A stretch of DNA of 64,000 nucleotides, from NCBI GenBank assembly GCA_019358895.1, contig JAHHIG010000007.1, positions 1 to 64,000 of the forward strand, written 5' to 3'. The notes beneath the pieces are model-generated. The model was not told where the DNA came from, ran no database searches, and saw only the letters and a list, made by a program, of their open reading frames with translations. Shown piece by piece: positions 1 through 46,573 of this stretch. A program made the translations under genes and the position numbers. The DNA is from Tildeniella nuda ZEHNDER 1965/U140 (lineage in GTDB: Bacteria > Cyanobacteriota > Cyanobacteriia > Leptolyngbyales > Leptolyngbyaceae). How positions within the stretch are numbered: the stretch's first letter is position 1; the number at the start of each line of letters is the position of its first letter.

Positions 1-195
1 GCACCACTCAGGTTGGCACCACGCAGGTTGGCACCACTCAGGTTGGCACCACGCAGGTTGGCACCACTCAGGTTGGCACCACTCAGGTTGGCACCACGCA
101 GGTTGGCACCACTCAGGTTGGCACCACTCAGGTTGGCACCACGCAGGTTGGCACCACTCAGGTTGGCACCACGCAGGTTGGCACCACTCAGGTTG
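1..195. repeat. 13 tandem 15-bp units coding pentapeptides
   Basis: Thirteen head-to-tail copies of GCACCAC(T/G)CAGGTTG lie here as read on the plus strand. The variable base reads T,G,T,G,T,T,G,T,T,G,T,G,T along the array. No other base changes. The array is the coding repeat of the minus-strand pentapeptide protein and continues to the window edge. Confidence 0.95.
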
Positions 196-287
196 GCACG
201 ATCGCCTTTCACCTCATCACTCCAACGTGTTTGCAGCCACTGATTATGCTGCTCTAACACTTGCTCTAAATCGTTGATTACGCGCAT
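1..287 (-). CDS. Pentapeptide-repeat protein (C-terminus beyond window edge)
   Basis: The reading frame starts with ATG at 287, behind an AGAGGT ribosome site, and runs off the left edge after 95 codons. A 31-residue leader ([14 protein letters not shown]...) is followed by thirteen consecutive A-N-L-S-G or A-N-L-R-G pentapeptides. Each is encoded by a 15-bp unit that differs from the others at only one base. Such A(D/N)LXX arrays fold as a right-handed quadrilateral beta-helix and are abundant in cyanobacteria; their functions range from DNA mimicry to unknown. The near-identical units point to recent expansion. The family call is firm. The cellular role cannot be told. Confidence 0.9.
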
Positions 288-350
288 AAAACCTCTAATG
301 GTTGAAAGATTAAGAAAGGCGACAAGTGCCGCCCGGTACACAAGTAAAAC

Positions 351-791
351 TCAGGCAGCGTTACGCTCTCTCACTGCTTGTCGGTTGCGCTCATACCGTA
401 CCTGCTCCCACTGCTGGAACAGATAAGCTGCTGCATCCTGGTAGGTGGCGTATTCAAGACTTTCACCGTTCTGCAAAGAATTGCGCTCGATGTAGCTGAT
501 CATCCAGCCGCCTGCACTGACCTTGATTTGCCCTAGCAGTTGAGCCTTGCCGCCGCGACTCTGCCAAGAAAGGCTGTAGCTGATTGGTTCAGTTGGTCGA
601 TCGCTGGTAAACCGACGAAAGCCACCATCTTGCAAAAAGTTGATGATGCGCGGTTCGCCGCTGATTGGGTCTTCGTCAATGTTGATGTAGGCAGGGGGTA
701 GAAGAGACGCGATCGCGCTGACTCCGCTGATGTCGCCTTGGGCGTATCGACTGAGGGCTGATCCGGCTTCATTGCTTGTGGTGAAGTCCAT
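351..791 (-). CDS. Hypothetical protein downstream of the helicase
   Basis: This is a 146-residue protein starting at the ATG at 791, which overlaps the stop of the helicase gene in a TAATG arrangement, so translation is probably coupled. A start 21 nt further upstream is possible but would lie inside the helicase gene. It shows no signal peptide or membrane segment. The C-terminus is charged and helical (region QQWEQVRYERNRQAVRERN). I do not recognise a family. The tight coupling suggests it works with, or is merely co-expressed with, the helicase fragment. Confidence 0.65.
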   Translation of the reverse strand: MDFTTSNEAGSALSRYAQGDISGVSAIASLLPPAYINIDEDPISGEPRIINFLQDGGFRRFTSDRPTEPISYSLSWQSRGGKAQLLGQIKVSAGGWMISYIERNSLQNGESLEYATYQDAAAYLFQQWEQVRYERNRQAVRERNAA

Positions 792-1399
792 TAGTTGAAC
801 CCTCCATCGCATTGAGGAAACCAGCTTTTCTGATGCTTCCAGGTGCCGCCTAACTCTGACTCGATCGCATTGGTCAAGAACGGCAGAGAAATGTCGTTGC
901 TGATTTCTTTTTGAGTTAGCTTTCCATCCTCAATCACGTCAATTAACGTGTTATGGGGAAAACACTCGTCTAAAGCTGCGCTCGAAAATTCACCAGATGC
1001 GATCGCACTCTCGAATTTATCCAAGCGATCGTAGTTCGTGATGATAATGGGCGATGTTGACTTAAGCGCTTCATCACCTGACTCTGCATACTCAACGCGA
1101 ATGCCGAACTTCTCACCCTCTTGTACGGTTTGCTCTGCTACTGCTAGGGGAGCCAGAATAAGGACGCGATCGCCTGTATATTTAGCAACGCAGTCAGCCC
1201 ACTTAAGCTGCATGTAGGTCTTGCCTTTGCCGTAACTGGCATAGATACCAGCACGACCGCAACGTAGTGACCACTTCACGATATGAGGCTGAAAGGCGTA
1301 CTTTGGCTCTGGTGTGCCTAACCATTCAGGATTGACTTCAAAGCCAGTTTGAGAGGCTGTAGAGAGCTTGGCATTGAGAAAAGTGTTGTAGTCAGTCAT
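791..1399 (-). CDS. SNF2/DEAD-like helicase N-terminal part ending in an intein N-segment
   Basis: The 202-residue product opens like a phage-type superfamily II helicase: a Walker A motif (ASYGKGKT, residues 54-61), the strand VLILAPLAVAEQT (motif Ia) and IIITNYDRLD (118-127). At motif II the sequence reads LDE-C (C146), where the family has LDES. The next 57 residues look like the start of an intein: CFPHNTLIDVIEDGKL matches block A (Cys1, TxxDV, DG), and a later GTWKHQKSWF resembles the stretch before block B. The frame then stops. No block B, F or G and no helicase C-half lie just downstream. The gene is therefore either an N-part of a split intein/helicase whose partner lies outside this window, or a truncated relic. 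The start ATG overlaps the preceding gene (ATGA). Confidence 0.75.
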   Translation of the reverse strand: MTDYNTFLNAKLSTASQTGFEVNPEWLGTPEPKYAFQPHIVKWSLRCGRAGIYASYGKGKTYMQLKWADCVAKYTGDRVLILAPLAVAEQTVQEGEKFGIRVEYAESGDEALKSTSPIIITNYDRLDKFESAIASGEFSSAALDECFPHNTLIDVIEDGKLTQKEISNDISLPFLTNAIESELGGTWKHQKSWFPQCDGGFN

Positions 1400-1590
1400 G
1401 CCACCACCCTCAACTCAGACTCGATCGCGCTCAACTGCCCCTGCCAATAATCGACCTGCGCCAACAGCGATCGCCGCTCCCCTTCATCCTTTGTTTTTGC
1501 TGCTAAAGCTTTATAGCGCGTCACCTGGAACTGGCAGTGCCCAGCCTCAGATAGTGGCTGTTCGTGCATCAATCGGAGTGATGGCTTCAC
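1396..1590 (-). CDS. Hypothetical small helical protein
   Basis: This is a 64-residue protein with a GTG start at 1590 that overlaps the upstream stop (GTGA); its own stop overlaps the helicase start (ATGA). It therefore sits in a translationally coupled run of minus-strand genes. Residues 20-60 (RYKALAAKTKDEGERRSLL...) are predicted as one charged helix, possibly a coiled coil. I do not recognise a family. Its position just before a helicase suggests the phage or plasmid early/replication region. Confidence 0.6.
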   Translation of the reverse strand: MKPSLRLMHEQPLSEAGHCQFQVTRYKALAAKTKDEGERRSLLAQVDYWQGQLSAIESELRVVA

Positions 1591-2036
1591 GCTGTCACCT
1601 CACCTTGAAGGGCTGAGATGAAGGCTTGGAGAAGCGCGATCGCGGGGTTTGCATCATCACAGCGATAGCTTGCCCCGTCGATCGCTATGCGCCCTTTGTC
1701 GTAAACGAACACATCCCACCGTGACTCATTGGTGTCTGCATGGTGGTAGGATTCTGCGTCAATTACCCAACCGCGCAGCGCGATCGCCTGCTGAATTGCC
1801 CATTGGAGCGCTGCCCAATTCTGCCATTCTGGTTGGCTGATAATTTGATCGTTTGTTAACGTAATCGTGTGCCCCTTGGCAAGCGTAAAGTGGCTTGTTA
1901 CTTCCAGCTCTTTTCCAGCGCTTTCGTGTCTCGTGTAATAGCTGCACACTTCAGGCGCTAGTTTTGCAAGAGAGACGAGGTTTGCTTTGAGAGCGGCAAC
2001 GTCGATTGATTTAGTCGTATCTGCTAGATTGGTCAT
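1587..2036 (-). CDS. Hypothetical protein, possible phage ABA-sandwich fold
   Basis: This is a 149-residue protein; I chose the ATG at 2036 (MTNLADTTK) because the longer frame reads through poor sequence. The C-terminal half has the order typical of small phage proteins of the ABA-sandwich type: a helix with W-A-A-L, a G-W-V turn, a strand W-D-V-F-V-Y, and a closing helix with A-I-A-L-L-Q-A-F. This match is by eye and weak. It is coupled by GTGA overlap to the next gene. Its function is unknown. Confidence 0.55.
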   Translation of the reverse strand: MTNLADTTKSIDVAALKANLVSLAKLAPEVCSYYTRHESAGKELEVTSHFTLAKGHTITLTNDQIISQPEWQNWAALQWAIQQAIALRGWVIDAESYHHADTNESRWDVFVYDKGRIAIDGASYRCDDANPAIALLQAFISALQGEVTA

Positions 2037-2103
2037 TAGTCGAGTCCGTACGTGTAATACGGGCGATAGGCTACTAGCCGGGGTGCACCCGGCGCAAAAT
2101 TCT

Positions 2104-2280
2104 TCAGGCGGCAGATTGCTCAGACGTTTCAGGTAACTGAGCAAGACCCTGATTAAGCAAAAAATGCACCCATTCCCACTTCTTTAGATGCGCAGGCTTG
2201 GATGCTTCAATTTGGGCATTGAGTGCGATAGGGACGTAGACTGCTACGCGATCGATGTTGATTACTTTTGTGGTTTTCAT
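2104..2280 (-). CDS. Hypothetical small protein, possible ribbon-helix-helix
   Basis: This is a 58-residue protein starting at the ATG at 2280, 4 nt after an AAAGGA ribosome site. A longer frame upstream would cross a terminator hairpin and is unlikely. The pattern of a short N-terminal strand (KVINIDRVAVYVPIAL) followed by two helices could be a ribbon-helix-helix fold, but there is no decisive signature. It is the first gene of the minus-strand run reaching the helicase and is divergent from the regulator at 2496. Confidence 0.5.
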   Translation of the reverse strand: MKTTKVINIDRVAVYVPIALNAQIEASKPAHLKKWEWVHFLLNQGLAQLPETSEQSAA

Positions 2281-2316
2281 TCCTTTAATTCCATGATTGA
2301 ATTCAAGCAAGGCTTT

Positions 2317-2355
2317 GAAAAAGCCCGCTGTGTAGTGGCAGCGGGCTGATTTTTC
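2317..2355 (-). terminator. Hairpin terminator in the leader of the minus operon
   Basis: GCCCGCTG (2323-2330) pairs with CAGCGGGC (2339-2346) around an 8-nt loop. On the minus strand the stem runs straight into TTTTTC, a good intrinsic terminator. On the plus strand it is followed by TGATTTTT. It lies between the divergent starts at 2280 and 2496, so for the minus operon it would sit in the 5' leader. Confidence 0.65.
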
Positions 2356-2495
2356 TAGATTGAGGAGACAGTAAACGTGGTGTTTGCTTCTGAAATTTAG
2401 TGTACTGGATTCCGCAGGCTGGATCAAGTAGACTTCATCGTTTCTTTACATCTCGTTTGATAGAATGAATTCGATACACTGGACGGGGCTTGCAA

Positions 2496-3194
2496 ATGTC
2501 AGAAGCAGGGGACGATTTGTTTTGGGATTCGCAGGGCTTGCGCCGCATTGCGGAGCTGATAAAAAGCCAAACTGGTCCTCAAGCAGGCAAGCGAATGACT
2601 CAAGAGCGGCTTTGCTATCTGGCTGGAGTTGGGAAAAGTAACCTTTCGCTTTTCCTCAAAAATATTGGCAACAGCAAAGGTTTCTACAGTCACATACCCG
2701 CGCCAGAGTTTCTACTCAAAATTGCACCGCACATCATTGATCCTGATACTGGTGAAAACTTTGACCCTGCCAAGTTCTTAGCGATCGCGTGGAAGTTAAA
2801 CGATCGCGTCATCGTACTTTCTCAGGCACCACAACCCGTTGCGCTGCCGACTCATATTTTGAAGCTTAAAGGTGCGATCGATGCTGTGCTTGAGGCTGAG
2901 CAAATTGATCTAAAAACGCTGGCTGAGTCAATGAAGCTGCATACAGCAGGTATTACAGAGCCGACAGCGTGGCTACAGTCGCTAATGACAGGCAGCACCA
3001 CAGTAGACCCGGATTCACTTCATTGCTTAGCAAATCGCGTACCGCTGGACGGTATCAAAAGCAATATTGAAGTCTGGGCAAAGCTTTTTGACCTGGATCT
3101 TAAGGCGATCGCCGCACAGCACGAACAGTCCAAGCAAGGCAATGGGCACAGTAAACCTGCCAAGAAAGAAGCGAAGCCTAAGCCGAAAGCTTAA
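2496..3194 (+). CDS. Phage-type DNA-binding regulator (HTH)
   Basis: This is a 232-residue protein; the ATG at 2496 is preferred over a TTG two codons upstream because GGACGGGG lies at a fitting distance. Residues 15-50 carry a helix-turn-helix pattern (RMTQERLCYLAGVGKSNLSLFL). A middle and a C-terminal helical part follow, with a second HTH-like stretch (LKTLAESMKLHTAGIT...) and a Lys/Pro-rich tail. It is divergent from the minus-strand small-gene run, which it may control. The regulator role is inferred from the HTH; the exact family is not recognised. Confidence 0.55.
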   Translation: MSEAGDDLFWDSQGLRRIAELIKSQTGPQAGKRMTQERLCYLAGVGKSNLSLFLKNIGNSKGFYSHIPAPEFLLKIAPHIIDPDTGENFDPAKFLAIAWKLNDRVIVLSQAPQPVALPTHILKLKGAIDAVLEAEQIDLKTLAESMKLHTAGITEPTAWLQSLMTGSTTVDPDSLHCLANRVPLDGIKSNIEVWAKLFDLDLKAIAAQHEQSKQGNGHSKPAKKEAKPKPKA

Positions 3195-11071: not shown

Positions 11072-12055
11072 ATGGGCGCGACTACGGCAATCAAGCCAAA
11101 GACTGAAAATTTGATCAGGGAGACGGTCGCTTTTGATGGCGGCAATCGCACGATTCAGTGGATTGACGCGCTAGGCATGGTGCATACAATCCCTTCGTTC
11201 ATCAAATTCATTGATCCTACTTGGCAGGAGATTCAGCCATCGCACAACAGCGTGGTGATTGAGCACGAAGGACAGACCTTTGTACTTGGGCAGGCAGCGA
11301 AGGAAGAGGACGGCAAGCCTATTTTTGAGGCTGGCAAAATCAGCCTTGCACCGAAGCTTGTACTGGCAGCGTTACAACCGAATCCAGGGGAGGACGTTGT
11401 ACGGATTGAGCGACTATTGCTGGCACTACCAAGCTCTCGTGTCACTGAAGATTTGGAAGTCCTCAAGTCGATCGAGGGTACGCACGAATTTACCCGCGAT
11501 GGGCAGCGTATCGTTGCAACTGTCGGTCGTGTGGTTCCAGTTGATGAAACAAAAGCGGCTCATGCTCGTGCTGTTAAAGATCGGCTCTTCAAGTCTGATA
11601 CCAAGCTCAACGGAGTTCTAGATCTAGGTGGGGGCACGGCTATCGCTCGTCTTTATAAAACAGATGGCTCCATCAAGCGCGATATGGATGTTATTTTGCA
11701 GGGTACTGACGCTCTGGCAGAAGCAATTTCAGCACGAATCAACCACAAGTTAGGGCACACAGCGCAGGCGTGGGCTGTGATGGATGGTATTGAACGTGGC
11801 GACTACGCAATTGGTGAAAATGGTCAGAGCTTCAAAGATGCATTTGATGACGCACATGCCGAATGGTTGACCAACATCCGGCAGAAGATTGGCAGTAAGT
11901 GGAAGCCGCTAAATCAATCGGGTCAGATTGGTGAAGTGCTCATCATCGGTGGTTCTGCCCCTTTAGCAAAACCACTGGAAGAGTTAACTAAAGGTCGATT
12001 TTTTGTTGCTGATATGCCTCAAGTGATCTCTATTCGTTCCATGCCTCTGCTATGA
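11072..12055 (+). CDS. parM: ParM/StbA-like actin ATPase for plasmid segregation
   Basis: This is a 327-residue protein behind TTAGGAGGAT. It has the actin-fold nucleotide motifs in order: phosphate-1 (VAFDGGNRT, residues 20-27, D22), phosphate-2 (GVLDLGGGTAIA, about 181-192) and adenosine (VLIIGGSAPLAKPL, about 301-314). ParM proteins form dynamic filaments that push plasmid copies apart; some phages use relatives to place their DNA. The length matches the family. The small overlapping gene at 12052 and the flanking repeats fit a partition cassette. The gene symbol rests on motifs and context. Confidence 0.85.
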   Translation: MGATTAIKPKTENLIRETVAFDGGNRTIQWIDALGMVHTIPSFIKFIDPTWQEIQPSHNSVVIEHEGQTFVLGQAAKEEDGKPIFEAGKISLAPKLVLAALQPNPGEDVVRIERLLLALPSSRVTEDLEVLKSIEGTHEFTRDGQRIVATVGRVVPVDETKAAHARAVKDRLFKSDTKLNGVLDLGGGTAIARLYKTDGSIKRDMDVILQGTDALAEAISARINHKLGHTAQAWAVMDGIERGDYAIGENGQSFKDAFDDAHAEWLTNIRQKIGSKWKPLNQSGQIGEVLIIGGSAPLAKPLEELTKGRFFVADMPQVISIRSMPLL

Positions 12056-19406: not shown

Positions 19407-19596
19407 GAGCGTGCTCTTCCCTCCTATTCGCCAACAATTGCTTGCTTTCGGGAGTGAGTGAATCTTCCAGTCCTCTCACCCACTCCCGAATCAATTCCGT
19501 TTTTGACCGCGCCACCTGATCTGAGTAGACTTCCAAAATGTCCATCTCACCAACCAAAATATCTGCGTTCAACCTGACACCTTTTCGCTTTGTCAT
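19399..19596 (-). CDS. Ribbon-helix-helix protein divergent from tnpB
   Basis: This is a 65-residue protein: KRKGVRLNADILV then YSDQVARSKTELIREWVRGL has the strand-helix-helix pattern of CopG/Arc regulators. It starts 37 bp from the TnpB start on the other strand, so one short region must hold both promoters. It may repress tnpB or be an antitoxin-like passenger. The role is inferred from fold and position. Confidence 0.55.
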   Translation of the reverse strand: MTKRKGVRLNADILVGEMDILEVYSDQVARSKTELIREWVRGLEDSLTPESKQLLANRREEHALS

Positions 19597-19633
19597 TTGC
19601 TATAATGTGAGTAGTAGTTACTCACAGCTTATC

Positions 19634-20737
19634 ATGCTCCTAGGTTTCAAGACGGAACTCAGGTTAAACAACGAGCAGCGCATAGTGTTGGCGAAACATG
19701 CTGGCACTGCTCGTCACGCTTACAACCAGGGTCTTGCTTTAACCAAACAGGTGCTTGATTGGAATACTACACACCCAGAAGATAAGATCAAGTTCCCGAC
19801 AGCAATTGACTTACACAAGTGGTACGTTGCATCTATCAAATCTGCCAATCCTTGGATATACGAAGTGTCTAAATGCGCTGGTCAATACGCGCTGAAAGCG
19901 TTGCGTGATGGGTGGGATCGGTGCTTTAAGAAAATCTCTAAGCCGCCAAAATTCAAGAAAAAAGGACAGCGTGATGCATTTAGATTAGATGGTACGATCA
20001 AAATTTTAGGCGTTAATCATCTTCAACTGCCCGTAATTGGAGTGTTGCGGACGTTTGAAAACTTGCCGCAATCGTTCAAGCCAAAGAGTGTCACGATTAG
20101 TCGTCAGTCCGATAAGTGGTTTGTTAGTTTCAATCTAGAAGTTGAGCCAACCCAGACAGAAAAAACCAATCTATCTGTAGGTGTTGACCTTGGCGTGAAG
20201 CATTTTGCTACCTTGTCTAACGGTCAAGTGTTCGACGTGCCTGCGTTGTACAAGCGGCTCAAAGTGAAGATTGCGAAGTTGCAATATGTCAACCGTCATA
20301 AAGTCATTGGCTCTCAAGGTTATAAAGACTTTCAAGCTAAAGTCGCTCGACTTCACTACCGTTTGTTTTGCGCTCGCAAGGACTTCTTAAATAAGCTGAC
20401 AACCTATCTAGCCAAAACTTTTCAGGTCGTCTGCATTGAAAATCTGAACGTATCGGGGATGCTGAAGTTTGGCAGGCTGGCGGGTGCTGTAGCCATGCTG
20501 GGCTTTTACGAGTTCCGTAGGCAACTGGCTTATAAGTGCAAGCTTTACGGTTCTCGACTGTCTGTAATCGGACGCTGGGAGCCTTCTAGTAAACTACATC
20601 ACAAGTGTGGTTGGAAGCATGAAACGCTCAAACTCTCAGACAGAATTTTCTACTGTCCTGAGTGTGATGAATCAATTGACCGTGATCTAAATGCGTCTCT
20701 GAATATAGAGCGCATCGGGCTGAGTCTCAGTTCGTGA
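19634..20737 (+). CDS. tnpB: TnpB RNA-guided nuclease of an IS200/IS605-type element
   Basis: This is a 367-residue protein; the ATG at 19634 (MLLGFKTELRL) gives the normal TnpB start. The RuvC residues are complete: D185 in GVDLGVKHFATL, E269 in CIENLNVSGM and D351 in DRDLNASLNIE. The zinc part is unusual: where relatives have SSKTCSxCG, this one reads SSKLHHKCGW (H322/H323, C325), then CPEC (C341, C344), so a His may replace the first Cys. TnpB cuts DNA guided by an RNA from the element's right end. No TnpA is present, so the element cannot move alone. Confidence 0.88.
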   Translation: MLLGFKTELRLNNEQRIVLAKHAGTARHAYNQGLALTKQVLDWNTTHPEDKIKFPTAIDLHKWYVASIKSANPWIYEVSKCAGQYALKALRDGWDRCFKKISKPPKFKKKGQRDAFRLDGTIKILGVNHLQLPVIGVLRTFENLPQSFKPKSVTISRQSDKWFVSFNLEVEPTQTEKTNLSVGVDLGVKHFATLSNGQVFDVPALYKRLKVKIAKLQYVNRHKVIGSQGYKDFQAKVARLHYRLFCARKDFLNKLTTYLAKTFQVVCIENLNVSGMLKFGRLAGAVAMLGFYEFRRQLAYKCKLYGSRLSVIGRWEPSSKLHHKCGWKHETLKLSDRIFYCPECDESIDRDLNASLNIERIGLSLSS

Positions 20738-37549: not shown

Positions 37550-40500
37550 TCAAATGTTGGCATTGGAAACTTGTTGGGCAGAAATGTCTGAGTAAATCTT
37601 GGCTGCATCATTCACGGGTGACGGACTAGAAACTGTGAGATTCGGTCTACCCATTGCTGAACTGATGACATTAATTAACTGATCGAGCTTGCTAGAGACA
37701 TCACCGCCTCCAGAACCACCCACAGCACCGCCGCCGAGTGATGGTATAGGTTTGTCTGCCAGTCCGCTGCTACCCAGTGGTGGCGCGTTGTTCATGCCTG
37801 CACCAATGACAGTTGGACGGAATGATGTATCAGCGATCCCATTGCCAGCGATCGCGGGTCTAATAGCCGTATCAAGTTGACCGTTGCCTGCGATCGTCGG
37901 TCTGATCGCGGTGTCTGCCATGCCGTTACCGGAAATCGTCGGTCTAATGGCAGTATCGATCGCGGCGTTGCTCATCTCTTGAGCAGGTTTCTTGATGCCC
38001 GACGCTGTGACTCCAATCAGCGTGATGAGAGCGCCTAGCCCTGCCAGTAACTGACCAATCCCGTCCGCTGAGCCACTACCGGACGGTGCAAACGCTTCAG
38101 CCCCACGTTCGCCCACTAAGTACGGCTGCCCAGCGTTGACGGGTCCACCTGTGGCGCGGGCTTGAATTGCCTGCTTTGCCCCTTGCATATTCTGTCCGCT
38201 CAGTATCGTGGCAGTCTTAGAAGCGTCGATAATCTCGCCTGACACTTTTGGAATAAAGAGTTCCTGACCTTTTTCACCAACGACATAGGGTTTGCCTGCC
38301 TGAACGTCGCCGCCTTTGGCGCGACCGGGAATACTACCTTGCATTCCTGATTTGATAAGCTGCTCAATGAATGAAACGTCATTATTAGCGCGTCGATTCT
38401 GATCTTGCCCTTCAAATTGTTCTCTTGCCGTCTCTTGGTTTAACGCCAGAACTTGACGGCTATTTTGCGCCATTTCTTTTTGATTTGCCAAGCCTTCCAG
38501 CGCTGTCTGAATTTGAATGTCAGCCACCTTAGACATATTGTTGGCGATCGCAAGCGACATTTGAGCGATCGCCATCCCCTCTTTATCACCTGACTTGATC
38601 GCTGTGGAATAGTCTTTAACTGCTTGGAGCTTGGCACGATCGGCATCGAGTTTATATCGCTGCCCCTCAATCACCAGTAACTTTGCTGCTATTTCTTGCT
38701 TGCGGATATCAAACTCAAGCGATTTTTTAGAAAGCTCAGCCTCTTTCTCGCGGGCACCTCTTTGCTTATCAGCAATGCTGTCTTCAATCTTCTGCCGAGC
38801 CAGTAGAATTTCGTAGGATTTTGAGTTGGCATTAACGCCACTAGCGCCAGACTCGTTTAACTGCTTGCCGATCAGTGCTTTTAGGCGCGGATCCATCTTC
38901 GGATCGCTTTCCACTCGATCTTGCAAACCGACGAGTCGATCGATTTTGTTTAGCTGCGTCGTGTCACGGGCGATCGCTAAGTCAGATTGAGCCTTTGCTA
39001 ACGCCCCCTGACTCTCAAGTAATTGCTTGGAGCGATCGAGCTGATCCGTCTCTAATTTGGCAACAGCTTCCAGTGACTTGATACGTGAGTCTCGTAACTG
39101 CTGCTGCATCTGCACCTGACGCTGTGCTTGAGCCAGTTGAATATCGGCTGTTTCTTTATTTAGCCTTTGCTCTTCTAGAATGCCTTCTTTCCGTGACCTG
39201 CTACCCTCTGCCACTAACGCTTTGTTGTCCTCTATGGCTTTGCGGTTGAGCGCTAGAGTCGCTACAGAAGTGCCCTGCTCAATCAGTGTTTGCGATCGCC
39301 CTGCTTGAGCTTGAGAGAATTCGCCAGCGTCGGGGCTGTTAAGGAGATTACCTTGTAAAGCCGTAGTTTGCTGAGTTTGAGCGAGGGCGATCGCGGCGGC
39401 AGCGCTTTGATTGAGAAAATTAATCTGCTCAATCTTTTGCCTGGTCGTTGCTTCAATTTTCTTCGCGTATGATTCCTCAAGCGATGCCGCTGCCTCTGTC
39501 CCTCTTGCTCTTGCTTCAGTAAGCTTGTCCCCTAGTGCTAGTTCATCATCATGAAACTTTTTAGCGTTGATGCGGCGCTCCTGGTAAAGCTGCTTATTGC
39601 GCTGCATCTCTCGCTCAACGTTGACAATGGCTTGACCCGCAAGGTCTTTTTGAGTTTTAGCTTGACTGATGCCCAAATCTGCATCGGCTACACCCGCTTC
39701 GGCATCGCTAAAGAAAACATTCTTCGCCTTCTGCATAGTCAGCTTTGCCCTTTGGGTGGCAAAATCCGCATTAGCCAGCGCTTGCCGTCTACTCAATGCG
39801 CTAGCTTCAGCCGCAGTGACTTTCTGAATCTGCTCAATGCGCTTGCGGTTAATGGCTTCAATACGTTTGCCCTTGGCTTCCTCGATTTGGGCTTCGGCTT
39901 CAGCACTTTTCGCCCTCGCCTGTGCCACCTGAGTAATTAAGTCACGCTCCTGATTCTTGAAGTCAATCTGATCAATTTTCCCTGCCTTGTAGTCTTCACG
40001 TAGTCGGCTCAAGGCAGCGCCAGAGTTAGCCAGCCCAGCCCCTGCACTTTGTTGTTGTGATTGGGCTTGGCTCAGTCCTAAATCTGCTTCTGCTACGCCT
40101 GCATCAGCGTCAGAGTAATATTGATTGCGCGATTTTTTAACGTTGATTGCTGACTGGTCTTTTCTCAGTTGAGTATTCCGGGTTAACTCAACCCGCGTAG
40201 CATAGGCAGCATCATTTGCATCTGATCTCTGTCTGAGATTAGCGGCTAACTGTCGTTCGGTTTGCTGCTGCTGTAGTTTGGACTGGTCAACCTGTAGTTG
40301 CTGTGCTGGTAACTGGTCTTGTAGATCTTTGAACTCTGCTGTAGACTCGATAGCTTTTTTAAGCTGTGGATTAGACGCTTGCCCTGCTTTCAGCTTTAAT
40401 TCTGCTGCGCCCGCATTCGGATCAATACCAGCAGCTTTGAGCGTACTTGTAGCATCGATCGATTGCAAATACTGTTGTTTCTTCGCAAGCTCATCTTGGC

Positions 40501-43500
40501 TAGCGCCAAGCTTTTGCTCTACCCCTTGCGTGTCAAGTTGCGCTGTTTTTTGCTGCGCCTGTTCTGAATTCAAACCACCAGTTAATTGTTGTTTTAGTAC
40601 ATCCGATTTACTGCCTGACACTGATGCATCGATCGCTTTTTGTGCGTCTTGGGCTTTAGCGGTGGCAAGATTCCATTTATCAGCAAAATTAGCGGCTAAA
40701 ACTGCCGCCTCAGACAGTTTGCGGTTGTACTGTGTTTGGACGCTTTGAGCCTTTTCCAGTAGTTTGATCGTAGCTTCGTATTCTTCTGTGGGTAAGCCTA
40801 GTTCTTTAGCTTGTTTGACAGACTCTCTAAAATTCTTCAGCGCCGAGTCAATTTGGGCTGATTGCTCCAAAATGGGTGAAGCTTGCTTGTCTCGCTGCTC
40901 TGATAATGCTTGCCGCTGCTGGCGCAACACTTCTAGCTGATTCTTGTCAGCATTGGGCTGCATCTGTAATTTTTGGCGTTGCATGTCGATCGCTTTCATT
41001 TGATCGTCAAGCGCTTTTACTTTGGCGATTTGAGCATTCATGCCACTAGCGTCAAAGGCTTTAGCAGCCACGTCCTGAGCAGCTAACGCTTGATCACCTA
41101 AAGATACTTGCTGATCGAACTGTTTTGATTCTGCCAGCGTGGTCATTCGCCCTAGACCAGTAAGCCCCATCTTTTCAACTAAGTTGTTGCGAATTTTAAT
41201 CGCATCATCTGTTTTGAACGACTTACCGAACATCCCACCCAATCCAAGCGTTAAGTCAAAGCCTTGCGAAGGCAAATCTTTTTTGTCGTTACCGATCCCA
41301 GCGACTTCACCTCTAGCGGCTTTTGCCGCTTCCTCTATGCGCTTCAGCCCGCTAACTGCCTCGTCTGTAAACTTGTTAAACTGTTTGGTGTTTTCATCAG
41401 GGGTGAACTGCCGCATCAGAGACTGCACAGACTCGATCGCGGCTGAAAAAAGCAGAAATTTAGCCGCGATCATGACTGATTGTTCAATCATTCGGGCTGT
41501 TGTGGCATTAAAGATTACGCCAAGTGACGCAACAGCCGTGCTACCAGTGATCGCCGCTGTTGCCATTCCAGTCAGTCGGACAATCAGATTGCCGCCAATA
41601 TAAGCAGCAGTTATAGCAATGATTGATCCCAACTTTTCCATCGCTCCTGCCAGTAAATCGACAGCAATCGTAGCAGTATCTAATCCCGCTTTTTGAGCTG
41701 GCTGAATAACCAAACCAAAAGCTTCCTGAGCACGTTGATTGGCAGCATTGAAGCGATTTTCGGAAGATTGGACATTTTGAGAAGCTGTTTTTGCAGAAGC
41801 ACCATAAGCAATCTGTAGCTGTCGCCCAAATTTAGGGATAAATTCTTCTGCTGATAACTGACCTGATTCAGTAAGTTTTGCTAATTCTTTTTCAGTGATC
41901 CCCATAGCGTCAGCAGCCGTTTTCATCACGCCTGTCAAGCCTGCGTCTCCTAGCTGTCCTTTTAATTCCTCCATCTGGACGGAACCCTTAGAAGCCATGT
42001 CACTTAGCGCTTTCATGACTTGCGCCGTTTGTTCGCTAGTTAGCCCTAAAACTGTTGCAGCTTGAGAAACACCCGTAATTGTTTCTTTGACAGCAAAACC
42101 TTCTGCCGCTGTGCCCTTGGTTGAAGCTGCCAGATTCTTGAAACCCTGCCTAGTTGATTCAAGTGGGATGCCTAAATCATCAACAGTCTTGTCGACAAAC
42201 TTAAAGTCTACTCCTGCCTGTGCAGCGCTACCACTGGCAAAATCTAGCGCTGTCTTGAAATTATTCAAATTACGGGCGGCAACCAAAGATTGATCAACGA
42301 TTGGCTTGAAAATATTGACAGCGGCTATGGTTAGACCAATTGCTCCTACGCCTTTCACAATCAATCCAAAATTACCAAGAATGCCTTTGACAGCCCTATC
42401 AGCAAACCCTGGCAACTTGGACAAAATACCTGGAATCGTATCGATTGCAGACTCAACAATCTTTGGTATAAAAATACCTAGTTGCTGCAACCCTTGTTTA
42501 AATGATTCAACGTAGCTAACGGCATTCTCTAAAGCCTCAGCCTTCAGGCTGCCTGTTGCTTGAGGCGATCGCGCTACTGACACCTGACTACCAAGACCGC
42601 CGAGTGCTGATTCTTTGAGCGCTCCAAACGCATTACCGATCGCGCCTAGTGGATTACCAATGGCGTTACCAACCGACTGTTTCGCCTGAAGTGCTTTGAC
42701 AAAGAAGTCAACCATCCGCTGATTCGGCTGCGCTTCCTGGATAGGCTGTGGCAGCGCTTCACCACTACGCACGCGAGTCGCAACATTGCTGAAGACTTTC
42801 GGTGCTTGCGTCTCAAACGCATAAGCGTCAGCTTCGGTCCGGGCGATCGTGCGTTGGAAATTCTGAGGCAGCAATCCGCCTGCCTGCTGATTGGCTACTT
42901 GAGCCGATCGCATGGCGTTGTACTGCATCGATCGCGGTAGCTCCTGGATCGGTGCCAAGGCTACGCCAGGTTGAGCAAAGCCTAGCGATTGCTTAGCAAT
43001 GCTGGAACGCCCAAAGTCAAACTGGAAGGCATGACGGGATTCGTGGACAACATCCTTAATTGCTTCTTGCTGTTTCTCAATCTGATCCACCGTGCCGCTG
43101 AGCATCGCAGCGACTTCTTTGGTGATGATGATCTGATTATTTTTGATGTTGTACAGTGCCCTAGCACCAATGGCTTGCAGCTTGGCATCATCGACTACCA
43201 GTTTAGGCAAATCACCGGGCTTGATTGTGACCTTAGAAAGTTTTGCCGCTTCCTGTACTAGCAATTGATAGGTTTGATCAGTCGTTAACTTAAGCTGTTG
43301 AGGCAGACGTTCTACTTGCTTCTGCGCTTCTCTTGCTGCTGCCTGCACCTTGGCAGCCATTGAAGGTGGTTGTGCAACGGGCGTAGGCTCTTTGATATAA
43401 CGTTCTTCTAGAGCATCCATTGTCTTATTCAGACCTGACGCGATCGCTGCTTTAGCTTTCTCAGTGTCAGCTTTCGCTCGGTTGATCAAACCGCCTAACA

Positions 43501-46500
43501 ACCCTTGCTTGGGCTGATCGCCAACTCGTGCTAATTCTGCAACGTCAGGTTCTAAAACTCGCTCTCTAGCATTCACAATACGAGGCACCGTAGCCATTGC
43601 CACAGCAGCACCTTTGAGCGGTATTTTGCCTAGCAGTCCTGCACCGGGCACAACACCATTCAGCGCTGATAGCCCAGCATTAGCCGCCATTGCTGAAACA
43701 TTGCCAATGGCAAAACCAGTCAAGTCGCCTGTGAGGTTTGCGCCCATTTCTTTCTGGAACGCCGCACCACGCATCCCGTTTAGCGCTGCTCGTGCAATCT
43801 CCTTAAACTGCCTACCAGTACTAGACTGATAAGCCTTGAACACTTCAGCCGATGCTGCGATCGCCTGACGCGCTACCAATGCCCCGACCAAATCGCCTGC
43901 AAGACCAGGGACAACGCCAAAGTTATTGCCTAGCTGAGAAGCGGCAAACCCAGCCGTATTCACTGCTAAATCAGTAGCGATCGCTTTTGCTTTGGGTGTA
44001 CGCGCCGTCTGCGCCAAATTGCCACGAATGGAACCAACAGGTTCAGCATTAAAGGATTTTGCTAAAGCGCCTGTAGCGTCTCTCAGTGTTTCTCTAGGCG
44101 ATCTTGCTAGCCCTTCAACATCGGCTGCGTTAAAGTTGGTTCGCAGTGACTCTAAGCGTCCGCGCGTCCTGCCTGCTTGCAAGCGAGTATCAGGAGACTG
44201 CGAAGCGCGTAGCTTTTCAAGCTCTGCTAAGGTGGCATTGATTTCATTGTTTGCTGCTGCGGCAATCTCTTCACGACGCTTGCCTTGGGCATCAACAAAA
44301 ATACGTAGCGAATCATTGATGCGTTTCTCGGCGTCTTTAGTAGCCGCGATCGCCTTTTTCTCTTCAGCCGACTGCGGCAATTTTTTGATCGACTGCCCAC
44401 CCTTCGGACCCGTTTGCACCAAAGGCGCGATCGCATCAAACGCTTCACGCACGGACCGGGCATCGGCTTCTAGTAATTCTTTGACTAGCCTGTCTTTTGT
44501 ACCTTTGCCAGCACCACCAGAAAGACTGGAGACTTCCTTGAGTATTTCGGTGTTATAGCCACTAATGATCGAGCGATCGAGCGGTTTCGTTTGCAGTGGT
44601 TGCGCCATCTGTGGGGGAGGGATGGCAGCCGCTTCTACGATCGCCTGCTCACGCTGTCTTGCTTTGAGTGCGGGTGCCGCTTGCTGCTGCGTGCCGAACG
44701 CCTGATACAGCATTGTTTCAGCTTCAGCCAGTTGCTCATCATAGCCAGCAAGTGTCTGATCAAGATTGCCCGTGGCTTGCTCCATCAGCAATTGCAGCTT
44801 TTCACGGTTGATCTTAATTTTGGCAATGACCGTTTTATAGAGTCCTGTTTTCAGGTAAAAGTCAGAACCTTGCATTGCTGCCATGAAATCATTGGCTGCC
44901 GCCTCCATGTCCTGCTCAACCGACTTCATCTCAAACGCCACAGCCGATTTTAATTCGGCAGGAATCTGGCGCTTGATATTGAGTTGCTTGAGGATTGCCC
45001 CTTGCGTGTCATCAGCACTGAGGTAGCTCGATAGTTTATGCCCCTTACCACCCTCAGCATGAATCTGAGCATCCTTTGCGCCTGACAACCTAGCGATCTT
45101 AGATAATGGGTCACCTTCACCTAAAACCGTTTGAAACTGTTCTTTCGTAGTGCTGGCAGTGCTGCTAAAGCGCGGTGTACCAATACCAACGGCGCGAACA
45201 TTATCAACGTTTGCCGCATTGAGTACTTCAGAGGATTCTCTAGCAGTAAAGCCACCTGCTGAATAACCCGCAATGCCGATCGGTAAGTCTGGATTTTCCC
45301 GACGCACCGCGATCGCCTGCGCTGCTGCCTCAATAGCATCTTTGCTAACTACGAGGTTTTGCATGACGATCTTGTTGATCGCTTCAGCAAAGAATCTGAG
45401 CTTACCTTCACCCAAATTCACTGATAAATCAGTAGCCTGGTTTTCAACAGGGATAACGGGATTCCGCTCACCCGTCAGCAGTTGCAAGCGTTCAGCGACA
45501 GGAATACTGCTTTTACCTCGTTGCGCCTTATCTTCATTGCCAGCAAAGCCACCAATCCCAAACACTACAGAATCAGCATTGTCGTATTTTGGTGCTTCAA
45601 TTTGTTCTGATCTTGCCTGCGCTGTTTTGGCTGCTTCCTTAACTAAGCGCTGCCGCCTGTCTTCAATACCTTCCAGCGGTGTAGCAGCAATATCGGCAAC
45701 CGCTCCAGCAATACCCTGGAGATTGCCGACCTGGACACCCACCCCTTTAAGCCGCAGCAGGTCGTCAATGAGTTTGCCGATCTGGGTTTCAAGAACACTG
45801 AATTTGCGATCGAGCGTTTTGGTATCAATGATTTCATTGAGGAACTCAGTGGCTTGCGCTACTTTAGGCTTTAGCCCTGCCAGACCTTCTTCAATGCCTA
45901 ACCGTTTGACAAAGCGATCGCCTGCAAACTTGCCAGCCTTGCCAAACCCAGCACTAAATTTCTCGCCTAGTTTATCTAGTGATGTGCCTAGCTCAGCTTC
46001 GATATTCTTGATAGAGCCTTCTGTAAACTTGCGGGCATAGGTAGCACCTACGCCTTCCTGAAAGCCTCGAATCGTGTTTTGTAGCCCACCTGTAATCGGT
46101 GCAAACAAACCCGATCGTGCCTGTGCTTTCTTCGTGCCTTCAGTAACTGCCTTAGTTAAATCCTCTTCTAATCCTTTAGTGTCTAGCTCAACCTTGCGGC
46201 TAGTATTTGATGGCGTGTCAGCACTGACTGTGACCTGTAGTGATCGCTCTAGCCGTGCCCTGACTTGCTCAACATTGCTACTGTTGATTGTTAGCGTAGC
46301 TCTCAGGTCAAGCGTGGTAGAAGTAGTCTGACTGATTTCGTGGGCTACCTGTAAGCGATCGACCTTGACACCGATGGCAATTGTAGGCTTTTGACTTTCA
46401 GTTTGTCTGATCTGATTTTGTAAAACCTTGGCATCAAAAGTAGGAGCAACTTTTAGCGATCGCTCCAAGTCTTTACCCATTGCCGCAGTCTGGTTTTTGA

Positions 46501-46573
46501 TACTGGCAAGAGAGCGATCGAAGTTATCTGTCTGTAGCCCCAACTCAAGATAGAGAGATCCAAGTGAGGTCAA
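37550..46573 (-). CDS. Giant tape measure protein with embedded hydrolase and zincin motifs
   Basis: This is a 3007-residue protein starting with TTG at 46573, 4 nt after GGAGGTGA. It contains, in order: a helical start; a lipase-like alpha/beta-hydrolase region (IGIAGYSAGGF with S438, GEGDPLS with D488, GHKLSSYL with H512); glycine/alanine helices; a metallopeptidase motif VVHESRHAFQ (H1177, E1178, H1181); the tape-measure domain (about 1440-1600, VQMEELKGQLGDAG and beyond); coiled-coil repeats of about 137 residues (2149 and 2286); and, near the end, two copies of GG-V-AG-PY-VGE-G-E and four of TAIRPTISGNG. It sets tail length, and parts may be released to open the host envelope. Confidence 0.9.
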   Translation of the reverse strand: MTSLGSLYLELGLQTDNFDRSLASIKNQTAAMGKDLERSLKVAPTFDAKVLQNQIRQTESQKPTIAIGVKVDRLQVAHEISQTTSTTLDLRATLTINSSNVEQVRARLERSLQVTVSADTPSNTSRKVELDTKGLEEDLTKAVTEGTKKAQARSGLFAPITGGLQNTIRGFQEGVGATYARKFTEGSIKNIEAELGTSLDKLGEKFSAGFGKAGKFAGDRFVKRLGIEEGLAGLKPKVAQATEFLNEIIDTKTLDRKFSVLETQIGKLIDDLLRLKGVGVQVGNLQGIAGAVADIAATPLEGIEDRRQRLVKEAAKTAQARSEQIEAPKYDNADSVVFGIGGFAGNEDKAQRGKSSIPVAERLQLLTGERNPVIPVENQATDLSVNLGEGKLRFFAEAINKIVMQNLVVSKDAIEAAAQAIAVRRENPDLPIGIAGYSAGGFTARESSEVLNAANVDNVRAVGIGTPRFSSTASTTKEQFQTVLGEGDPLSKIARLSGAKDAQIHAEGGKGHKLSSYLSADDTQGAILKQLNIKRQIPAELKSAVAFEMKSVEQDMEAAANDFMAAMQGSDFYLKTGLYKTVIAKIKINREKLQLLMEQATGNLDQTLAGYDEQLAEAETMLYQAFGTQQQAAPALKARQREQAIVEAAAIPPPQMAQPLQTKPLDRSIISGYNTEILKEVSSLSGGAGKGTKDRLVKELLEADARSVREAFDAIAPLVQTGPKGGQSIKKLPQSAEEKKAIAATKDAEKRINDSLRIFVDAQGKRREEIAAAANNEINATLAELEKLRASQSPDTRLQAGRTRGRLESLRTNFNAADVEGLARSPRETLRDATGALAKSFNAEPVGSIRGNLAQTARTPKAKAIATDLAVNTAGFAASQLGNNFGVVPGLAGDLVGALVARQAIAASAEVFKAYQSSTGRQFKEIARAALNGMRGAAFQKEMGANLTGDLTGFAIGNVSAMAANAGLSALNGVVPGAGLLGKIPLKGAAVAMATVPRIVNARERVLEPDVAELARVGDQPKQGLLGGLINRAKADTEKAKAAIASGLNKTMDALEERYIKEPTPVAQPPSMAAKVQAAAREAQKQVERLPQQLKLTTDQTYQLLVQEAAKLSKVTIKPGDLPKLVVDDAKLQAIGARALYNIKNNQIIITKEVAAMLSGTVDQIEKQQEAIKDVVHESRHAFQFDFGRSSIAKQSLGFAQPGVALAPIQELPRSMQYNAMRSAQVANQQAGGLLPQNFQRTIARTEADAYAFETQAPKVFSNVATRVRSGEALPQPIQEAQPNQRMVDFFVKALQAKQSVGNAIGNPLGAIGNAFGALKESALGGLGSQVSVARSPQATGSLKAEALENAVSYVESFKQGLQQLGIFIPKIVESAIDTIPGILSKLPGFADRAVKGILGNFGLIVKGVGAIGLTIAAVNIFKPIVDQSLVAARNLNNFKTALDFASGSAAQAGVDFKFVDKTVDDLGIPLESTRQGFKNLAASTKGTAAEGFAVKETITGVSQAATVLGLTSEQTAQVMKALSDMASKGSVQMEELKGQLGDAGLTGVMKTAADAMGITEKELAKLTESGQLSAEEFIPKFGRQLQIAYGASAKTASQNVQSSENRFNAANQRAQEAFGLVIQPAQKAGLDTATIAVDLLAGAMEKLGSIIAITAAYIGGNLIVRLTGMATAAITGSTAVASLGVIFNATTARMIEQSVMIAAKFLLFSAAIESVQSLMRQFTPDENTKQFNKFTDEAVSGLKRIEEAAKAARGEVAGIGNDKKDLPSQGFDLTLGLGGMFGKSFKTDDAIKIRNNLVEKMGLTGLGRMTTLAESKQFDQQVSLGDQALAAQDVAAKAFDASGMNAQIAKVKALDDQMKAIDMQRQKLQMQPNADKNQLEVLRQQRQALSEQRDKQASPILEQSAQIDSALKNFRESVKQAKELGLPTEEYEATIKLLEKAQSVQTQYNRKLSEAAVLAANFADKWNLATAKAQDAQKAIDASVSGSKSDVLKQQLTGGLNSEQAQQKTAQLDTQGVEQKLGASQDELAKKQQYLQSIDATSTLKAAGIDPNAGAAELKLKAGQASNPQLKKAIESTAEFKDLQDQLPAQQLQVDQSKLQQQQTERQLAANLRQRSDANDAAYATRVELTRNTQLRKDQSAINVKKSRNQYYSDADAGVAEADLGLSQAQSQQQSAGAGLANSGAALSRLREDYKAGKIDQIDFKNQERDLITQVAQARAKSAEAEAQIEEAKGKRIEAINRKRIEQIQKVTAAEASALSRRQALANADFATQRAKLTMQKAKNVFFSDAEAGVADADLGISQAKTQKDLAGQAIVNVEREMQRNKQLYQERRINAKKFHDDELALGDKLTEARARGTEAAASLEESYAKKIEATTRQKIEQINFLNQSAAAAIALAQTQQTTALQGNLLNSPDAGEFSQAQAGRSQTLIEQGTSVATLALNRKAIEDNKALVAEGSRSRKEGILEEQRLNKETADIQLAQAQRQVQMQQQLRDSRIKSLEAVAKLETDQLDRSKQLLESQGALAKAQSDLAIARDTTQLNKIDRLVGLQDRVESDPKMDPRLKALIGKQLNESGASGVNANSKSYEILLARQKIEDSIADKQRGAREKEAELSKKSLEFDIRKQEIAAKLLVIEGQRYKLDADRAKLQAVKDYSTAIKSGDKEGMAIAQMSLAIANNMSKVADIQIQTALEGLANQKEMAQNSRQVLALNQETAREQFEGQDQNRRANNDVSFIEQLIKSGMQGSIPGRAKGGDVQAGKPYVVGEKGQELFIPKVSGEIIDASKTATILSGQNMQGAKQAIQARATGGPVNAGQPYLVGERGAEAFAPSGSGSADGIGQLLAGLGALITLIGVTASGIKKPAQEMSNAAIDTAIRPTISGNGMADTAIRPTIAGNGQLDTAIRPAIAGNGIADTSFRPTVIGAGMNNAPPLGSSGLADKPIPSLGGGAVGGSGGGDVSSKLDQLINVISSAMGRPNLTVSSPSPVNDAAKIYSDISAQQVSNANI

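What the first reader, a model, noticed from the sequence alone, without database searches (positions are those of the whole stretch)
791..1399. Helicase interrupted at its DE-S motif by the first 57 residues of an intein, then a stop
Seen: Walker A GKGKT, then LDE followed by C146 and an intein-like block A (CFPHNTLIDVIEDGKL), with the stop 57 residues later. The next gene starts in the TAATG overlap, and its product does not look like an intein C-part. Known: split inteins occur in cyanobacteria and phages, often in conserved active-site motifs. Inference: this is the N-half of a split helicase/intein pair, with an N-part shorter than the usual 100 residues, or a dead remnant.
Basis: partly seen in the sequence, partly recalled or inferred. 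Interest (0 to 1): 0.75.

Follow-up and report, generated by a model that had tools for sequence, protein, structure and literature searches.

The report
Broken phage helicase, probable intein stub
A cyanobacterial prophage carries only the first third of a DNA helicase gene, cut off exactly where a self-splicing protein element (an intein) could have inserted; no matching second half was found, so it is most likely a dead gene remnant and not a working split protein.

Summary
ORF 791-1399(-) encodes 202 aa. Residues 1-145 are the N-lobe of a phage SF2 helicase, and profile similarity ends exactly at motif II "DE". A Cys follows; 47 of 48 relatives have Ser there. The 57-residue tail is not helicase. 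Its first 22 residues resemble intein block A: 2 of 3,552 Cys-start decoys and 48 of 20,000 shuffles score as high. The likeness is weaker than nearly all held-out true inteins, and the NCBIfam intein model misses the tail while finding 4 of 4 real inteins cut to 57 aa.

The split-pair reading found no support. The prophage continues on contig C33, shown by a 67-base overlap inside one repeat gene and by two complementary radC parts flanking it. No helicase C-half and no unpaired intein C-part was found in the prophage or the 96.25%-complete assembly. The next gene has a stand-alone homologue in a related prophage.

Best reading: a decayed helicase gene, probably once interrupted by an intein whose remainder was deleted together with the helicase C-half. 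Low interest.

The parts
965..1399 (-). N-terminal lobe of an SF2 phage helicase, residues 1-145, with Walker A SYGKGKT and motif II LDE at its very end
   Evidence: phrog_62 E 1.3e-11; ResIII E 2.3e-4, just under its cut-off; helicase profile 135.4 bits ending at residue 145; alignment with 14 relatives
899..964 (-). Intein block-A-like stretch, residues 146-167 (CFPHNTLIDVIEDGKLTQKEIS); probable intein start
   Evidence: Score 12.3; 2 of 3,552 decoys and 48 of 20,000 shuffles reach it; 1 of 43 held-out true inteins is below 12.3; no hit to TIGR01445 at E up to 10
791..898 (-). Rest of the tail, residues 168-202, and the stop codon; origin unknown
   Evidence: No Pfam, NCBIfam or PHROGs family at E up to 10; only the identical contig in viral contigs; chance-level hits in 388 genomes
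351..791 (-). Next gene, overlapping the stop as TAATG (an in-frame ATG also lies at 812); a conserved separate phage gene, not an intein C-part
   Evidence: 40% identity over 125 aa to a stand-alone gene in L112, directly before the RDF homologue
1..341 (-). 5' part of a pentapeptide-repeat gene (named by eye) that runs off the contig and continues on contig C33
   Evidence: 67-base exact overlap with the end of C33 inside the same repeat

Best explanation
This is a decayed gene. The ancestor was a phage SF2 helicase of about 450 residues, of the kind that sits before or is fused to a DNA methyltransferase. An intein probably sat between the motif II 'DE' and the following Ser (inferred). A deletion then removed most of the intein and the whole helicase C-half, leaving about 20 residues of block A joined to unrelated sequence that ends at the next gene (inferred). 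Shown: the exact break, the Cys, a block-A likeness above chance for that place, and no partner found. What is made, if anything, is a helicase lobe without motifs III-VI. It cannot splice in cis because the intein core and C-part are missing, and no C-part for trans-splicing was found.
For: The helicase profile stops exactly at DE and the tail is not helicase. The residue after DE is Ser in 47 of 48 relatives, a residue that can follow an intein. Block-A score beyond 3,550 of 3,552 decoys. Four collected cyanobacterial inteins also begin directly after a '(V/I)(V/I)DE' (L139, L140, L147, L150). No helicase C-half in the prophage or assembly; no unpaired intein C-part. A related prophage lacks the helicase at this place, so it seems dispensable. 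Broken or partial members of this helicase family also occur in plasmid records (3 of the 12 matched: CP045836, NZ_CP040811 and NC_011887).
Against: The intein assignment is weak. TIGR01445 and Pfam find nothing in the tail at E up to 10, while 4 of 4 real inteins cut to 57 aa and 1 of 2 cut to 25 aa are found. That model also misses, at E up to 0.1, the intein-like insert of Pacc40 gp60, so its silence is not decisive. The tail scores below nearly all held-out true inteins and ranks only third of 1,079 Cys in the prophage. No relative was found with an intein at this site. The reading frame and helicase motifs of the N-lobe are intact, which an old pseudogene need not keep.
Confidence: 0.6

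Rival explanations
1. A truncated helicase with no intein involved: a deletion or replacement joined the N-lobe to unrelated coding sequence that happens to begin with Cys and to look like block A.
For: No intein-family hit; two decoys and 0.24% of shuffles score as high; third of 1,079 Cys in the prophage; partial genes of this family are seen elsewhere.
Against: Needs the break to fall exactly after DE, a Cys as next residue and a block-A score in the top 0.1% of decoys, all by chance. No gene was found that the tail could come from.
Confidence: 0.29
2. A working split intein: this gene makes the N-extein plus a short N-part, and a second gene makes the C-part plus helicase motifs III-VI; the two splice in trans.
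For: Intact frame and N-lobe; site and +1 Ser suit an intein; natural N-parts of 25 and 37 residues are known (PMC11766414, passages). About 4% of the genome is estimated missing.
Against: No helicase C-half by single sequences or by profile in the assembly or prophage. Both intein C-termini of the genome have an N-part 1.2 and 2.0 kb upstream. The prophage is covered except for repeats inside one gene.
Confidence: 0.07
3. An intron or frameshift: the helicase goes on after an RNA intron or in another frame.
For: An abrupt end at a conserved motif would fit an intron insertion.
Against: No helicase C-half in any of six frames of the prophage. Eleven tblastn rows at E up to 1, best 0.012, are short and scattered; the best pair lies in two different frames of the conserved next gene. 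Rfam finds no intron in 1-3000 at E up to 1.
Confidence: 0.04

Closest known systems
Phage SF2 helicase of helicase-methyltransferase modules (e.g. Synechococcus phage S-H1 AZB50546.1; mycobacteriophage 'DNA helicase/methylase')
   Same: Residues 1-145 match from the N-terminus to motif II
   Different: The window gene lacks everything after motif II and has no methyltransferase behind it in the two genes that follow
Naturally split inteins with short N-parts (AceL-TerL, GOS-TerL)
   Same: An N-extein followed by a Cys-started short block-A-like stretch and a stop
Intein pseudogene of phage origin (Arthrobacter FB24 Arth_1007, PMC3196547, abstract and outline seen)
   Same: Inactive intein in a gene of phage origin whose host protein is not an intact helicase
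   Different: There a whole intein remains but lacks catalytic residues; here at most the intein start is left
Mycobacteriophage inteins in active centres, including helicases and N6/N4 methyltransferases (PMC5050341, passages)
   Same: Inteins in phage DNA-metabolism enzymes; Pacc40 gp60, of the same helicase-methyltransferase family, has an intein-like insert
   Different: The Pacc40 insert lies in the methyltransferase part, not at the helicase DE motif

Membership tests
SF2 phage helicase (phrog_62-like) | Walker A and motif II in an N-terminal RecA lobe | tested here: met
   Profile 135.4 bits over residues 4-145; phrog_62 E 1.3e-11
SF2 phage helicase (phrog_62-like) | Second lobe with motifs III-VI | tested here: not met
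   Absent from the ORF and from all six frames of the prophage
Class 1 intein | Cys1 and block A directly after a conserved extein motif | tested here: inconclusive
   Cys at DE| with Ser in 47 of 48 relatives; score 12.3 beyond 3,550 of 3,552 decoys; no TIGR01445 or Pfam hit
Class 1 intein | Block B (TxxH) and blocks F/G ending in (H)N before Ser/Thr/Cys | tested here: not met
   By eye not in the 57-residue tail; block-F pattern absent from prophage ORFs of at least 60 aa, and a loose block-G pattern gives 3 hits with no helicase motif in those ORFs
Split intein | A separate gene with C-part and C-extein in the same genome | tested here: not met
   TIGR01443 finds only two places, each with an N-part upstream; C-half profile finds two ORFs that also match the first lobe, and one hit at E 0.9. 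Assembly 96.25% complete
Split intein | Trans-splicing activity | not testable with these tools
   Needs expression and mass spectrometry

The most novel reading that the evidence does not exclude
A naturally split intein at the DE|S motif of a cyanophage helicase, with an N-part of at most 57 residues and a partner gene in the unassembled few percent of the genome or supplied by another mobile element.
Probability: 0.06. Interest if true: 0.45.

Novelty: new member of a known kind. Interest (0 to 1): 0.18.

Why it matters
As a remnant it is one more example of a phage helicase gene breaking down, perhaps at an intein site, and it warns that 'N-half plus block A plus stop' does not make a split intein. 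If a partner existed, it would add a site to the small set of natural split inteins with very short N-parts, which are of use in protein labelling.

Tried and rejected
Tail as diverged helicase: BLAST ran past DE in two alignments (P0002 to residue 181, L110 to 174), 7 of the 20 phage rows listed end at 181, and phrog_16259 ran to residue 167. The profile test and a local-alignment shuffle test (191 of 500 shuffles as good) show that this extension is chance.

Tail as the end of a known gene: in 388 genomes the best match outside G000 had E 0.0016, which is within chance for so many genomes. Ten loci were looked at. Those I recognise by eye as an EgtD-like methyltransferase (L115, L120) and a rhodanese-like protein (L119, L122) were dropped as chance-level.

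Direct repeat GCGATCGAGTC(A/T)GAGTT at 846-868 and 1406-1428 (pattern chosen after seeing it): possibly a deletion footprint, but its core GCGATCG is a word that recurs across this sequence. Not pursued; the repeat finder did not list it.

Intron remnant: none in Rfam at E up to 1; one sub-threshold sRNA match at 2316-2370.

Searches (exact pattern in two genomes; papers) gave nothing; one search listed nothing used. C-half profile in 388 genomes at 1e-20: no match, but without a positive control in that set. No structure was predicted.

Full report
WHAT IS THERE. The ORF 791-1399 on the minus strand is 202 aa. Pfam gives ResIII at E 2.3e-4, just under its cut-off; PHROGs gives phrog_62, DNA helicase, at 1.3e-11. 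tblastn finds 304 phage records and 7 plasmid records. Of the 20 phage rows listed, 13 end at residue 145 and 7 (Flavobacterium phages) run to 181; the 7 plasmid rows end between 100 and 146. Full relatives are helicases of 456 aa (S-H1) and 468 aa (snusmum9-1), or a 759-aa fusion with a methyltransferase (Deinococcus plasmid). In an alignment of the window with 14 relatives, 22 columns are invariant, among them G57, G59, K60, D144 and E145.

WHERE IT BREAKS. A profile of 28 non-redundant relatives (of 47) aligns to residues 4-145 and stops at the E of DE. The tail lowers the score slightly (135.4 against 136.4 bits for the N-part alone), and 1,677 of 2,000 shuffled tails reach 135.4. So the tail is not helicase. 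All 48 loci examined (L004-L050 and L110) run through this place without interruption; 47 have Ser and 1 Val after DE. Of 306 phage records matched by the S-H1 helicase, 304 have one place covering at least 80% of it; the 60 rows listed are single pieces, one of them (Pacc40) partial.

IS THE TAIL AN INTEIN START? I took 45 intein N-parts from cyanobacterial genomes (39 by place; 6 of the 30 loci), dropped 2 whose profile match did not start at Cys (L126, L135) and built a 22-position profile from 43. The tail scores 12.3. Of 3,552 other Cys-start stretches from ORFs of at least 120 aa in phage, plasmid and genome loci, 2 reach this; of 20,000 shuffles with Cys kept first, 48 do. When whole groups of inteins are held out, true members score 9.3 to 34.0: 1 of 43 is below 12.3, and 2 of 43 are below the tail scored with the same held-out profile. 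The recalled AceL-TerL N-part scores 25.7. Against an intein: TIGR01445 finds nothing in the tail at E up to 10, but finds 4 of 4 real inteins cut to 57 residues and 1 of 2 cut to 25; Pfam and a search of solved structures show no intein. The same TIGR01445 model also misses the intein-like insert of Pacc40 gp60 at E up to 0.1, so it is not fully sensitive. Over the prophage the stretch ranks third of 1,079 Cys; the score alone is therefore no proof, and its weight comes from lying exactly after DE. Four of the collected inteins (L139, L140, L147, L150; DnaX by recall) also begin directly after a DE. I judge an intein origin likely, not shown.

IS THERE A PARTNER? The window is the left end of contig C34 (279,196 bases) of a 6.08-Mb, 38-contig, 96.25%-complete assembly. 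The contig starts inside a pentapeptide-repeat gene. The end of contig C33 (37,839 bases) is identical to this start over 67 bases and carries the rest of such a gene. Independently, radC is in two complementary parts in the same orientation: C34:70726-71337 matches TIGR00608 positions 1-165 and C33:23172-23387 matches positions 162-217 of 218. The C33 part lies next to a serine recombinase at C33:23203-24813. C33 also carries a Gp3-like recombination directionality factor, an AAA_25 ATPase with a sub-threshold Prim-Pol match, and a family A DNA polymerase. The prophage, about 85 kb, is thus covered except for an unknown number of 15-base repeats. In it, a C-half profile scores at most 3.6 bits against 456 for a control; tblastn of C-halves gives 11 rows at E up to 1, the best 0.012 and 0.014, short and scattered; motif patterns for the helicase C-half give none in ORFs of at least 60 aa (the best pair was inspected). 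In the whole assembly the C-half profile meets ORFs of 1,179 aa (C38) and 1,405 aa (C11) and one hit at E 0.9; both ORFs also matched the first lobe, so they look like complete helicases. The intein C-terminus model finds two places, C1:81823 and C5:11225, with N-parts at C1:80404 and C5:9007. No unpaired C-part is left over.

SURROUNDINGS. The next gene has a homologue (40% over 125 aa) in a related prophage, L112, directly before a homologue (73%) of the RDF gene; L112 has no helicase match over the 19 kb held. In 388 genomes of the class the N-part query matches only this genome at E up to 0.001; the C-half profile matches none at 1e-20, without a positive control. A genome-contig scan gave one distant relative, in Methylopila. 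A viral contig (70,214 bases) carries an identical stretch ending in the same repeat. It may be the same strain, so it is no independent witness.

MECHANISM. Most likely the gene is dead: an N-lobe lacking motifs III-VI, ended by an intein stub and some unrelated residues. Shown: break, Cys, likeness, no partner found. Inferred: that an intein was present, that a deletion removed the rest, and that nothing splices.

KNOWN CONTEXT. Phage inteins lie in active centres of terminases, helicases and methyltransferases (PMC5050341, passages). Pacc40 gp60, of this helicase-methyltransferase family, has an insert in its methyltransferase part that reads like an intein (by eye; weak matches to intein-bearing protein models). 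An inactive intein of phage origin is described (PMC3196547, abstract and outline). Short natural N-parts are described (PMC11766414, passages). No paper on an intein at this site of this helicase family appeared in the searches; only listings and the passages named were seen.

Noticed in passing
C34:70726-71337 (L051:6726-7337, beyond the window) and C33:23172-24813 (L077:3172-4813): radC is split by the prophage: the N part lies at one end, and the C part lies at the other end beside a serine recombinase. Excision would be expected to restore radC (inferred).
   Followed up: partly
L165:3447-7472 (Mycobacterium phage Pacc40 gp60): Helicase-methyltransferase fusion annotated as DNA methylase, with an intein-like insert (starting CLARGSLVLTKGGYKP, ending ...VVKN before Cys) in the methyltransferase part.
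   Followed up: partly
window 37550-46573, minus strand: A 3,007-residue ORF without a Pfam match at E up to 0.001.
   Followed up: no
window 11072-12055, plus strand: A phage partition-protein-like gene (phrog_691, E 8.4e-14) in what looks like an integrated prophage.
   Followed up: no
window 19538-20737, plus strand: An OrfB_IS605 (TnpB-like) transposase gene inside the prophage.
   Followed up: no
window 846-868 and 1406-1428, minus strand: Near-identical words GCGATCGAGTC(A/T)GAGTT in the helicase tail and at the end of the gene upstream; both read AIESEL in frame.
   Followed up: partly
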